Below are positions 33,771 to 39,017 of a stretch of DNA of 64,000 nucleotides, piece after piece. The stretch spans positions 248,001 to 312,000 of the forward strand of contig JADFMN010000004.1 in the NCBI GenBank assembly GCA_022563855.1. Direction: 5' to 3'. Below the pieces are notes generated by a model. That model did no database searches. It saw only the letters and a program-made list of their open reading frames with translations, and had not been told where the DNA came from. The position numbers were made by a program, and so were the translations under genes. The first letter of the stretch is position 1, and every line of letters starts with the position of its first letter. Source of the DNA: Armatimonadota bacterium (lineage in GTDB: Bacteria; Armatimonadota; Fimbriimonadia; Fimbriimonadales; Fimbriimonadaceae).

Positions 33771-34994
33771 ATGAAAAGGCTCGTATACCTACTCATTGCA
33801 TCAGCGATCGGTTCCGCCTCCGCAAGCGCGCAAGTAAACGTTCGATCCTCTGAACTCAATGAGGCGACCTTCTCGAAGATCCGCGCCGCGATCCTTCTCA
33901 ACCCGTCGGCGGCGCAGTGGGAGACGATCCCATGGCAGCCCGAACTCGGGCCAGCGATCACCGAAGCACGCAAGCAGGACAAGCCGATCCTCCTGTGGAT
34001 GATGAACGGAAACCCCGTCGGCATGACTTGATTCAACGGTGTAAAGGACAGGCAGTTAGCCTGGGAAGACGAAGGAGTCAGGGAGCTAGTCAAGGGTTTC
34101 TTGCCGGCCACCGACGAAGTGGACAAGCTGCAGCGCGGCAACACGCCCGCGAGCAGGTTCTTCCGTCAGGTCATGACCCGCAACTACTCCAACCTGCAAA
34201 CCACGCAAGGCACCTACTTGGTGACGCCAAGCGGTGAGCTGCTGGGTTATGGTCACACGCTCGATCCTGCGGGGATGAAGACGTTCCTCAAGGACGGGCT
34301 GAAGAAATGGAACGCAATGTCACAGGCGGAGAGGCTCGGGAACGAAGCAAACATGGCCAAGAAGTCCTCGATGTATCCCGAAGACGGGCTCGTACTCATG
34401 GTCGCGCTGCACAAGTTCTATGAGAGAGAGCCGCGCACCGCGCGCGAGCTACGCGGACTGGTCGAGTGGAACAGGGACTACGCGTGGTTCAGCAAGGACG
34501 AAGCGCGACAGTTCCTCCCCAATGCTCCCAAGACGGGCGACAAGCACGAAGTGCCGACAAGCCTGATCAACCGGCTGGCGCGTTACCACTTCACGGACAC
34601 GGTTCTTGCTTGGGCAGACCCGTATCCGTTGAACAAAGTTGAATCCGCACAGCTGACGTCGACGGTCACTAAGATCGAAGGAAACATTGTTTCAGTGCGG
34701 TTCGACGGCGCCGTCAAGGTGTGGCAAGACGACCTTCCACGCTTCGGCTACTCCAGGGCGCGGCTCCCGCGCAAACCCGACCGCGGCTACGACGCAAAGC
34801 TCCTTGGTTATGCCACTTTCGACTTAGAAACGAGCAAGTTCGTGTCGTTCGAACTCGTCGCCAAGGGTGCCCATCACGGCGGTGGCGTGGGCGCATACAC
34901 TGTTCCGACGACCCTGGGCATCGTGCTTTCTCTCGCTGGGGACAGACCGATGGACCGGATCGAACCGCTGCACATCAGACAGTACGATTGGTGA
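33771..34994 (+). CDS. Predicted secreted selenoprotein, thioredoxin-like (in-frame UGA as Sec87)
   Basis: Read through one TGA (34029-34031), the gene gives 407 residues in a single frame. It has a Sec signal peptide (MKRLVYLLIASAIGSASASA-Q), then a thioredoxin-like segment ARKQDKPILLWMMNGNPVGMT-U-FNGVKDRQLAW, and a conserved-looking body to GIVLSLAGDRPMD. The sequence before the TGA (KPILLW) is the first strand of a thioredoxin fold, and the TGA falls where such proteins carry their redox Cys. I recall planctomycete relatives with Cys or Sec at this spot, but this is from memory. There is no Cys anywhere in the chain, so Sec87 would be the only redox residue. A hairpin 18 bases downstream looks like a bacterial SECIS. 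A nonsense mutation is the alternative. Confidence 0.7.
34049..34063 (+). promoter_or_regulatory. SECIS-like hairpin for Sec87
   Basis: CAGGC and GCCTG form a perfect 5-bp stem around the loop AGTTA. The loop begins 23 bases after the end of the TGA, inside the range seen for bacterial SECIS elements, and has G as its second base. It lies in coding sequence, as bacterial SECIS elements do. Confidence 0.5.
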
Positions 34995-35083: not shown

Positions 35084-35557
35084 ATGACCATCCAGAACGA
35101 CCAGCCGTTCCCGACGATAAAAGCCTTCAGGCTCGATGGCGGCAAGAGGACACTGCCCGACGACCTTGGGCCGGGCTGGAGCGTGCTCCTCTTTTATCGC
35201 GGAGTGTGGTGAAGCTTCTGCCATCGGCAGTTGGCCGAGTTCCAGTCACAGTTCGAGCGGCTTCGGCGCCTAGAGACGCAGGTCGCGGCCCTCTCTTCGG
35301 ACTCTGAGGAAGAGGCGCGGGAGATGGTCGATCGCAACTCTTTGACCTACCCCATGTACTTTGGGCTCGACGCCGAGAGGACGCTGGCGGCGATCGGAGG
35401 CCATGTCAAGTTGGAGAAGGGGTTCGTGCAGCCGTCGGGGTTCCTTTTGCGGCCCGACCGGACCATCGTCCAGTTCACCCAGTCGAGCGGGCCGATTGGC
35501 CGGTTTGACGCCGTGGACGCGGTGAGCATCATCAAGTGGTACCAGGAGAGTAGTTGA
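35084..35557 (+). CDS. Predicted peroxiredoxin-like selenoprotein (UxxC, Sec43)
   Basis: Read through TGA 35210-35212, the gene gives 157 residues in one frame. The context LLFYRGVW-U-SFCHRQLAEFQ aligns with the AhpC/TSA-like motif YRGxWCPYCxxQL, with the TGA exactly at the peroxidatic Cys. C46 would be the resolving partner in a UxxC pair and is the only Cys. The rest is a complete peroxiredoxin-like domain (GLDAERTLAAIGG, then GFLLRPDRTIVQFTQ), and codon use does not change across the TGA. It has no signal peptide, so it is cytoplasmic. It probably reduces peroxides. Sec machinery (selA, selB, selC, selD) is not in the window. Confidence 0.8.
35218..35230 (+). promoter_or_regulatory. SECIS-like hairpin for Sec43
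   Basis: CTGCC ATC GGCAG, a perfect 5-bp stem starting 6 bases after the TGA. The loop is closer to the TGA and smaller than in well-studied bacterial SECIS elements. An alternative fold, GCCA/TGGC around 8 bases (35220-35235), is also possible. Confidence 0.35.
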
Positions 35558-37558: not shown

Positions 37559-37673
37559 CAGAGTCTCCTAGCCTGTGCGAGACGCCAATCACAGAATGAA
37601 TTCTACCGGGCGTGGGGCACGCGTCAGGTATGGTCATGCCACCGGCGCGAACGCGCCGCCGAGGAGATTTGAT

Positions 37674-39017
37674 ATGAAAGTTATTGGCATCGTCGGCATC
37701 CTGGGTTTGGGCCTGGTTGCCGCGACCGCAATTTCGTTCTCGTTGTCCAGGGATGCTGTCGGAGCTTCTGCTACGGCGAGCAAAGCTTCGGAATCAAGTG
37801 AATTCGTGTCGGCGGAGTCGTTCTTCACAGGAACTGTGGTCGATAACGATGGTGCTGGCCCGCTCGCAACGGACTTGGAACGCGTTAATCCCAGGCGGGA
37901 ACTGCCCCAGGGCATGGAGTGGATAGCCCAGACCCCGCCGGTCGATACGTCCGGCATCGGCATGAAGACGGCAGACGGAGTGTTCGTCGGAGTCGTGCTC
38001 CCGTACGACACGCGCGAGGGCGACCAGGTCTCCACCGTCGTCGTCGCATCGGCGCCGCCGGGCGAGTCCGAGGCGATGTTCGCGGGCATGGTCATCGTGG
38101 ACCCCCAAGGCAAGAATCACGACGTAAAGCCTGGCGAGTTCATCACCTTCGCCGCTGTCGGGGCCATGGTCTGGAAGCTGCTCGACCGGGACGGCAACAC
38201 GGTCGCCGAGACGAACGTCGATCTAACGGACCAGGAGAGCCGCGACAACGAGTTCCAGCACGAGCCGATCATCGCCAGGTCGAAACAGGTGATCGACATC
38301 CCCGGCGACTTCAACGGAGACATGTCCGACACCAAGATCACGATCGCTGGCCAAGAGGCGACGATTATCGCCGAGAACCCGCGCGGCGCGGTCTTCGCAG
38401 TGCCCGACCTCGGTGAGAGGGTCGGCGAACTGGGGTGCGTCGTGGAGGAGGCCGGCGAGACGTATGAGATCCCAATGGTCGCTATCTCACTGAGCATCGA
38501 AGGCCCAAAGACCATGGTGCTTGGTCAGACCTCGAACATCAAGATCACGATCAACGGCCTGGGCGCTCTGGAGGACCTTCCAGAAGGGCAGATGGTCGAC
38601 AGTATCTACATCAAGTACCGCAACGACACCCCTGCGACGATCAGCTTCCCGAACCACAACGTGGACTCGCACGCGGTCGACATCTCGCAGGTCAAGGACG
38701 GTTCGTACACGTTCGAGGCGCCGATTACAGCCGTGTCGCCTGGTTCGTTCATGGTCGAAGCATGGAGCTGGGTCTATCTGGAGGCGTCGTACGGCCAATA
38801 CTGTACGTCGCGGCAGTGCTGCTTGGTCACGTGCGGAACCTGCACAGAGGGCTGGTTCTTCTGCAACGACGACGGCACGGTCAACTGCGCCAAAGTGGAC
38901 AAAGACAAGATTCAGTGCGGCCGGTGCGGCCAAGCCAACTGCAACAACAACCACTCGGGCGGCGCCGCTTGCGGTCACTGGTGGTGCAGTTGCCCCTTCG
39001 GTGCCTGCGGCTGCTGA
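37674..39017 (+). CDS. Secreted protein with C-terminal 15-Cys tail, unknown function
   Basis: 447 residues from ATG 37674, chosen for the GAGGAG 7 bases upstream and the hydrophobic start (MKVIGIVGILGLGLVAATAISFSL). The body (about 60-375) is beta-rich and looks like two or three immunoglobulin-like modules, for example DFNGDMSDTKITIAGQEATII and LGQTSNIKITINGLG. The last 73 residues contain 15 Cys in tight spacing (CTSRQCCLVTCGTC near the start, CSCPFGACGC at the very end) and several Asn, Gly and Trp. Such a tail could be a disulfide knot or a metal-binding module. I do not recognise the family. It lies between an intact GH172 gene and a GH172 remnant. Confidence 0.7.
   Translation: MKVIGIVGILGLGLVAATAISFSLSRDAVGASATASKASESSEFVSAESFFTGTVVDNDGAGPLATDLERVNPRRELPQGMEWIAQTPPVDTSGIGMKTADGVFVGVVLPYDTREGDQVSTVVVASAPPGESEAMFAGMVIVDPQGKNHDVKPGEFITFAAVGAMVWKLLDRDGNTVAETNVDLTDQESRDNEFQHEPIIARSKQVIDIPGDFNGDMSDTKITIAGQEATIIAENPRGAVFAVPDLGERVGELGCVVEEAGETYEIPMVAISLSIEGPKTMVLGQTSNIKITINGLGALEDLPEGQMVDSIYIKYRNDTPATISFPNHNVDSHAVDISQVKDGSYTFEAPITAVSPGSFMVEAWSWVYLEASYGQYCTSRQCCLVTCGTCTEGWFFCNDDGTVNCAKVDKDKIQCGRCGQANCNNNHSGGAACGHWWCSCPFGACGC

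What the first reader, a model, noticed from the sequence alone, without database searches (positions are those of the whole stretch)
33771..34994. Cys-free secreted protein interrupted by one in-frame UGA: predicted selenoprotein
The reading frame on both sides of TGA 34029-34031 is the same and encodes one continuous protein. It has a signal peptide, a thioredoxin-type first strand (KPILLW) and a redox-site position NPVGMT-U-FNG. No Cys occurs in the 407 residues, so Sec87 would be the only chalcogen. A 5-bp hairpin with a G in its 5-base loop lies 18 bases behind the TGA. Normal gene callers would report a truncated protein and lose the first 90 residues with the signal peptide and active site.
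Basis: partly seen in the sequence, partly recalled or inferred. Interest (0 to 1): 0.88.

Follow-up and report, generated by a model that had tools for sequence, protein, structure and literature searches.

The report
Undescribed bacterial thioredoxin-fold selenoprotein family
The gene with an in-frame stop really does look like a selenium-containing enzyme, and it belongs to a large protein family, apparently not catalogued before, in which bacteria of several phyla place selenocysteine, and almost never ordinary cysteine, at the same active-site position.

Summary
Window 33771-34994 is one frame interrupted only by TGA 34029-34031. The genome (order Fimbriimonadales, Armatimonadota) carries selA, selB, selD and a tRNA-Sec gene. 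In 113 genomes of the class, 65 homologous loci were read: 58 have TGA at exactly this codon, two Ser, two Asp, one Cys, and two are gapped. A pattern scan of GTDB genomes allowing Cys, Sec or Trp codons there returned 115 true homologues, mainly Planctomycetota and Verrucomicrobiota. All 115 have TGA.

A bacterial-SECIS-type hairpin follows the codon at conserved registers. It shows compensatory changes and exceeds synonymous-codon controls. AlphaFold puts Sec87 at the nucleophile position of a thioredoxin fold, followed by a beta-barrel domain without a clear match in the PDB. The family matches no Pfam or NCBIfam model above cut-off, and I recognise none of the 119 families in a 2026 catalogue as it. 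Its near-absence of Cys forms explains why homology-based selenoprotein searches would miss it.

The total lack of Cys is peculiar to this member: most relatives have C-T-U or C-U. The next gene (35084-35557) is a second, peroxiredoxin-like selenoprotein. Catalytic activity and substrate are inferred.

The parts
33771..34994 (+). Selenoprotein gene, 407 aa with Sec at residue 87; stop TGA 34992-34994
   Evidence: translation with TGA=U; homologues aligned over the full length in one frame
33771..33830 (+). Probable signal peptide MKRLVYLLIASAIGSASASA
   Evidence: read directly from the sequence; many homologues also begin with a hydrophobic stretch; no signal-peptide predictor was available
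34029..34031 (+). In-frame TGA read as selenocysteine 87
   Evidence: TGA at the same column in 58 of 65 class loci and 115 of 115 GTDB homologues
34049..34063 (+). bSECIS-like hairpin CAGGC(AGUUA)GCCUG, apical loop 22 nt after the TGA
   Evidence: meets the published bSECIS limits on loop size, stem length, G in the loop, spacing and MFE
33912..34325 (+). Thioredoxin-fold domain, residues 48-185; Sec87 directly before helix 88-95
   Evidence: AlphaFold2 model, mean pLDDT 89; VIA-align Z 13.4 to 3f9u, 9.6-9.8 to DsbD C-terminal domain
34356..34991 (+). C-terminal beta-barrel-like domain, residues 196-407, no clear structural relative
   Evidence: AlphaFold2 of the domain alone, mean pLDDT 90.5; best VIA-align Z 7.6
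35084..35557 (+). Adjacent second selenoprotein: AhpC/TSA peroxiredoxin-like, motif U-S-F-C, Sec at TGA 35210-35212
   Evidence: 89 bp downstream on the same strand
35224..35238 (+). Hairpin UCGGC(AGUUG)GCCGA behind the second gene's TGA, loop nearly identical to that of the first

Best explanation
The gene encodes an exported selenoprotein of a widespread family that I could not find described. UGA 34029-34031 is decoded as Sec by SelB and tRNA-Sec with the help of a hairpin 17-32 nt downstream (inferred from conservation; no protein data). After export the N-terminal domain folds as thioredoxin of the DsbD-gamma / DUF255 / Thioredoxin_7 type. Sec87 takes the place of the nucleophilic first Cys of CxxC, while the place of the resolving Cys is an invariant Gly (U-x-N-G). 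Most relatives have a substitute Cys at -2 (C-T-U) or -1 (C-U), which can form a selenenylsulfide with Sec. The window protein has neither, so it would work as a one-residue selenol enzyme that needs an outside thiol to resolve its selenenic acid or mixed selenenylsulfide. The likely activity is reduction of peroxides, or of disulfides or oxidised thiols, in the cell envelope. The beta-barrel domain probably binds the substrate or partner. The neighbouring peroxiredoxin-like selenoprotein fits a shared oxidative-stress role. Shown here: conserved TGA, machinery, hairpin constraint, predicted fold and site. Inferred: Sec insertion itself, export, redox chemistry, substrate.
For: selA 513 bits, selB 345 bits, selD 359 bits with its own in-frame TGA, and tRNA-Sec with a UCA anticodon about 1.7 kb past the window end. 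TGA conserved at one codon across phyla. Of 35 class genomes with a Sec form, 34 have selA, against 26 of the other 78 (Fisher p = 2e-11, not corrected for relatedness). A bSECIS-like hairpin of score 7 or more in 99% of 173 homologues, against 37-65% at shifted positions; mean score 9.66 against 6.90 (sd 0.20) under synonymous recoding. With groups chosen by protein motif, not by pairing, one pair is C-G in 40 and G-C in 23 of 63 sequences with no exception, and the next is T-A, C-G or G-C. In the register shared with the window, Arg codon 7 is AGG/AGA in 34 of 34, while other Arg codons in the same stretches are mostly CGN. In four loci whose records are titled Rhodopirellula or planctomycete the gene lies beside selA and a selD fusion, with a selB-like ORF upstream of selA in two. 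Structure model; the profile alignment to 3ira, though at an insignificant E-value, sets Sec87 on the first Cys of its C-H-W-C.
Against: No expression, mass-spectrometry or selenium-labelling data. The window's hairpin alone is not significant. Function rests on fold and motif only; no conserved metabolic neighbour was found. Pfam Thioredoxin_7 matches only some members, weakly (best E 5.6e-4).
Confidence: 0.95

Rival explanations
1. Pseudogene or sequencing error: the TGA is a recent nonsense mutation or a wrong base in the assembly.
For: One stop in an otherwise intact frame is what such an event would look like.
Against: Same codon TGA in 58 class loci and 115 GTDB homologues from independent assemblies, with protein conservation on both sides.
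Confidence: 0.01
2. TGA is read as an ordinary amino acid (Trp or other) through a changed genetic code or general read-through.
For: The frame stays open, and homology runs through the codon.
Against: TGA also ends this gene and the next. The internal TGA is the only one, at one invariant column, followed by a constrained hairpin. The selABCD set is present and tracks the Sec form across genomes. Homologues without TGA have Ser, Asp or Cys there, never Trp.
Confidence: 0.01
3. The TGA is a real stop and the product is two proteins: a short N-terminal piece and a separately started C-terminal barrel protein.
For: A TTG-started 297-aa ORF exists downstream.
Against: The stop would fall just behind the first thioredoxin strand, whose other strands lie downstream. 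Homologues lacking TGA (Ser, Asp, Cys) are single uninterrupted proteins.
Confidence: 0.02
4. It is a selenoprotein, but Sec serves a non-catalytic role, for example metal or selenium binding or a structural selenenylsulfide with the Cys at -2. (A rival to the redox step only, not to Sec insertion.)
For: Cys is rare at the Sec position; some members in genomes without selA have Ser or Asp there, so the barrel may work without redox chemistry.
Against: Sec sits at the nucleophile position of a thioredoxin fold, and the window protein lacks any Cys to pair with.
Confidence: 0.2

Closest known systems
VPGUxxT thioredoxin-like selenoproteins (NF041383/NF041382)
   Same: Weak profile similarity over the thioredoxin-like part (best E 5.8e-4 in 7 of 51 members); selenoprotein with a thioredoxin-like domain
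   Different: Far below the model's cut-off of 275 bits (14.8 bits for the one member whose score was shown); motif VPGU against GHPxGCTUxNG; adds a C-terminal barrel domain
Thioredoxin_7 (PF13899), DUF255/DsbH (PF03190) and DsbD-gamma domains
   Same: Predicted fold; Sec87 aligned with the first Cys of CxxC
   Different: Second Cys replaced by invariant Gly; extra Cys at -2 or -1, or none; Sec instead of Cys; no match above Pfam gathering score was established
Peroxiredoxin and Prx-like selenoproteins (PF00578, UxxC), as encoded by the neighbour gene at 35084-35557
   Same: Adjacent gene, Sec, near-identical SECIS loop
   Different: Different family; the window protein gives no AhpC-TSA match
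Glycine reductase selenoprotein A (GrdA)
   Same: A selenoprotein family nearly or wholly without Cys homologues (PMC1794560; PMC12013277)
   Different: Unrelated in motif (CxxU) and Pfam family (PF04723)

Membership tests
Bacterial selenoproteins (SECIS-directed Sec) | In-frame TGA conserved as Sec in homologues | tested here: met
   58 of 65 class loci, 115 of 115 GTDB homologues
Bacterial selenoproteins (SECIS-directed Sec) | bSECIS: loop 3-9 nt, stem 4-16 bp, G in the first two loop bases, loop 16-37 nt from UGA, MFE <= -7.5 | tested here: met
   loop 5, stem 5, loop AGUUA, 22 nt, -8.3 kcal/mol
Bacterial selenoproteins (SECIS-directed Sec) | selA, selB, selC, selD in the genome | tested here: met
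Bacterial selenoproteins (SECIS-directed Sec) | Se detected in the protein | not testable with these tools
   needs 75Se labelling or mass spectrometry
Thioredoxin fold | beta-alpha-beta fold with the active residue at the N-terminus of the first active-site helix | tested here: met
   pLDDT 89; Z 13.4 over 124 residues, rmsd 2.9, to 3f9u; Sec87 directly before helix 88-95; predicted, not solved
Classical thioredoxin / DsbD-gamma | CxxC (or UxxC) redox motif | tested here: not met
   U-x-x-G; Gly90 invariant in alignment A1
VPGUxxT selenoproteins (NF041383) | score above NCBIfam cut-off | tested here: not met
   best E 5.8e-4 among 51 members; the one score shown is 14.8 bits against 275; no match for the window protein
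Any Pfam or NCBIfam family | match above curated cut-off for the window protein | tested here: not met
The 119 families of the 2026 prokaryotic selenoproteome catalogue | listed motif or domain corresponding to GHPxGCT-U-x-N-G | tested here: inconclusive
   no entry recognised by motif or domain, and the listed NF models with a copy in NCBIfam r20 were covered by the scan; representative sequences could not be fetched

The most novel reading that the evidence does not exclude
A large envelope enzyme family that depends on selenium: Sec is ancestral, Cys is almost never an accepted substitute, and loss of the Sec machinery goes with replacement by Ser or Asp (loss of the chalcogen) and not by Cys. 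The window member carries this further, with Sec as its only redox-active chalcogen (no Cys at all). This would point to a reaction for which thiolate chemistry is not enough.
Probability: 0.4. Interest if true: 0.82.

Novelty: new variant of a known kind. Interest (0 to 1): 0.74.

Why it matters
Selenoprotein finders that rely on Cys/Sec pairs cannot see a family without Cys forms, and gene callers split it at the TGA, so a family present in several phyla appears to have gone unlisted. It gives Planctomycetota, Verrucomicrobiota and Armatimonadota a shared selenoprotein and a possible reason for keeping the Sec machinery. It also allows a direct test of what Sec can do that Cys cannot, because nature offers Sec, Ser, Asp and Cys-flanked versions of one fold.

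Tried and rejected
The first GTDB scan with back-translated peptides of the window protein found nothing: the protein is too divergent and its motif atypical. Plasmid and viral collections gave no match. Two TGT matches of the GTDB pattern (L102, L188) lie in unrelated frames and were discarded. Neighbourhood clustering found no widely conserved partner beyond the sel genes in four loci; the largest other clusters look like spurious antisense ORFs or genes seen in few loci. The neighbour Prx-like selenoprotein is not conserved as a TGA-bearing close relative in the class. PDB searches with the C-terminal domain gave only OmpA/PagL/PsbO-like barrels at Z 7.6 or lower, within the noise stated for the method. 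Literature: no hit for the motif string or for Fimbriimonadaceae with selenocysteine. The supplementary selenoprotein list of the planctomycete paper PMC4807772 (S9 Table) could not be opened, so an earlier mention of a member there is not excluded.

Full report
Observation. The frame 33771-34994 holds one internal stop, TGA 34029-34031, and encodes 407 residues without Cys. A gene caller sees a 95-aa and a 297-aa ORF. The hairpin CAGGC(AGUUA)GCCUG is at 34049-34063 with the loop 22 nt after the TGA and MFE -8.3 kcal/mol, inside the published bSECIS limits (PMC13188914).

Machinery. The window lies in a 3.18-Mb assembly. It has selA (513 bits), selB (345 bits), selD (359 bits, with an in-frame TGA in KCAG-U-ASK) and a tRNA-Sec with anticodon UCA (74 bits), the last about 1.7 kb beyond the window.

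Homologues. Searching 113 genomes of the class gave matches in 39. Of 65 loci aligned, 58 have TGA at the same column; the others have Ser (2), Asp (2), Cys (1, in a rearranged C-D-D-C) or a gap (2). No other TGA column is shared beyond two sequences. The 117 matches contain 115 TGA, all inside family frames, and two chance TGT matches in unrelated frames. Record titles name mostly Planctomycetota and Verrucomicrobiota, then Armatimonadota, and single Latescibacteria, Neomarinimicrobiota, Chloroflexi and Actinomycetota MAGs (titles are as deposited; some may be wrong). A search of 291 genomes of the phylum shows the same: nearly all strong matches carry one TGA inside.

Link to selenium. In the class, 34 of 35 genomes with a Sec form have selA above cut-off, against 26 of the other 78 (Fisher p = 2e-11, without correction for relatedness). 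The exception, G005, is 73% complete. Of four genomes with only non-Sec forms, three lack selA. In four loci whose record titles name Rhodopirellula or planctomycetes, the gene lies beside selA and a selD fusion, with a selB-like ORF before selA in two of them.

RNA signal. With 173 homologues, 99% have a bSECIS-type hairpin of score 7 or more, against 37-65% at displaced positions. Mean score is 9.66 against 6.90 (sd 0.20) when codons are redrawn synonymously and 7.39 (sd 0.20) when codons are permuted within each sequence. Subfamilies use slightly different registers. To avoid choosing by pairing, groups were then defined by protein motif. In the DR-type (63 sequences), 98% of cells pair, one pair switches between C-G (40) and G-C (23) without exception, and the next between T-A, G-C and C-G. 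In the window's type (33 sequences) 98% of cells pair. The stem forces rare AGG/AGA Arg codons at one site in 34 of 34 sequences of that register. For the window alone the hairpin is only suggestive (P about 0.05 at the exact register; 0.33 for any register).

Protein. AlphaFold2 on 51 aligned sequences gave mean pLDDT 89 and pTM 0.88. Residues 48-185 are a thioredoxin fold: VIA-align Z 13.4 (rmsd 2.9, 124 residues) to 3f9u, about 10-12 to ERp19/AGR proteins and DUF255/DsbH domains, 9.6-9.8 to the DsbD C-terminal domain. Sec87 lies directly before the helix 88-95; the weak profile alignment to 3ira sets it on the first Cys of C-H-W-C and Gly90 on the second. Invariant columns of alignment A1 include W55, G80, P82, T86, Sec87, N89, G90, Q146, G147, Y149, D276 and G370. 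Cys85 at -2 is present in 50 of the 51 sequences of A1, the window having Met; this set was drawn with a pattern that requires that Cys, so the class loci are the fairer count: C-T-U 45, C-U 10 (H-C-U or A-C-U), and M-T-U, S-T-U and T-T-U one each. Residues 196-407 form a barrel-like beta domain, predicted well alone (mean pLDDT 90.5) but without a clear PDB relative (best Z 7.6).

Mechanism. Shown by conservation: the TGA is a coding position under RNA- and protein-level constraint in Sec-decoding genomes. Inferred: it is Sec, the protein is exported (signal peptide read by eye), Sec87 is the attacking residue, and the Cys at -2 or -1 in relatives is the resolver. The window protein, having no Cys, must rely on an external thiol. 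Reduction of peroxides or oxidised thiols in the envelope is the most likely activity; it is supported by fold and by the adjacent Prx-like selenoprotein at 35084-35557 (U-S-F-C, AhpC-TSA E 5e-18), whose hairpin loop AGUUG matches AGUUA. No close TGA-bearing relative of that neighbour was found elsewhere in the class, so the link is local.

Known or new. Pfam and NCBIfam (June 2026) give nothing above cut-off; the weak leads are Thioredoxin_7, DsbH and VPGUxxT thioredoxin-like selenoproteins. I recognise no entry of the 119-family catalogue of 2026 (PMC13188914) as having this motif. The deep-Sep paper states that its search may miss selenoproteins without Cys homologues and that only GrdA was known as such (PMC12013277); an older survey also names FdhA, SelW-like and GrdB as having very few (PMC1794560). 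The planctomycete selenoprotein list in PMC4807772 could not be opened (one search shows only that it exists). So the family is probably, not certainly, undescribed. I rate it a new variant of a known kind: a selenoprotein family with its own motif and domain make-up, and a nearly Cys-free pattern of substitution.

Noticed in passing
window 35084-35557: A second selenoprotein gene directly downstream: AhpC/TSA peroxiredoxin-like, U-S-F-C motif with TGA 35210-35212 and hairpin loop AGUUG; ordinary ORF calling misses its start.
   Followed up: partly
L081, L087, L138, L173: In loci titled Rhodopirellula or planctomycete the family gene adjoins selA and a selD gene fused to an N-terminal NADH-dehydrogenase-like part; a selB-like ORF precedes selA in two of them.
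   Followed up: partly
L090:2010-4353: Two tandem copies of the family in one Planctomycetota contig, both with TGA.
   Followed up: no
L031, L036, L039, L042-L045, L055, L056, L066: A distinct subfamily with motif FGDPRG[HA]C-U-QNG, where Cys directly precedes Sec.
   Followed up: partly
L069, L072, L073, L078: Homologues with Ser or Asp in place of Sec; three of these four genomes lack selA.
   Followed up: partly
window 37575-39017: 480-aa ORF without a Pfam match next to a DUF2961 protein.
   Followed up: no
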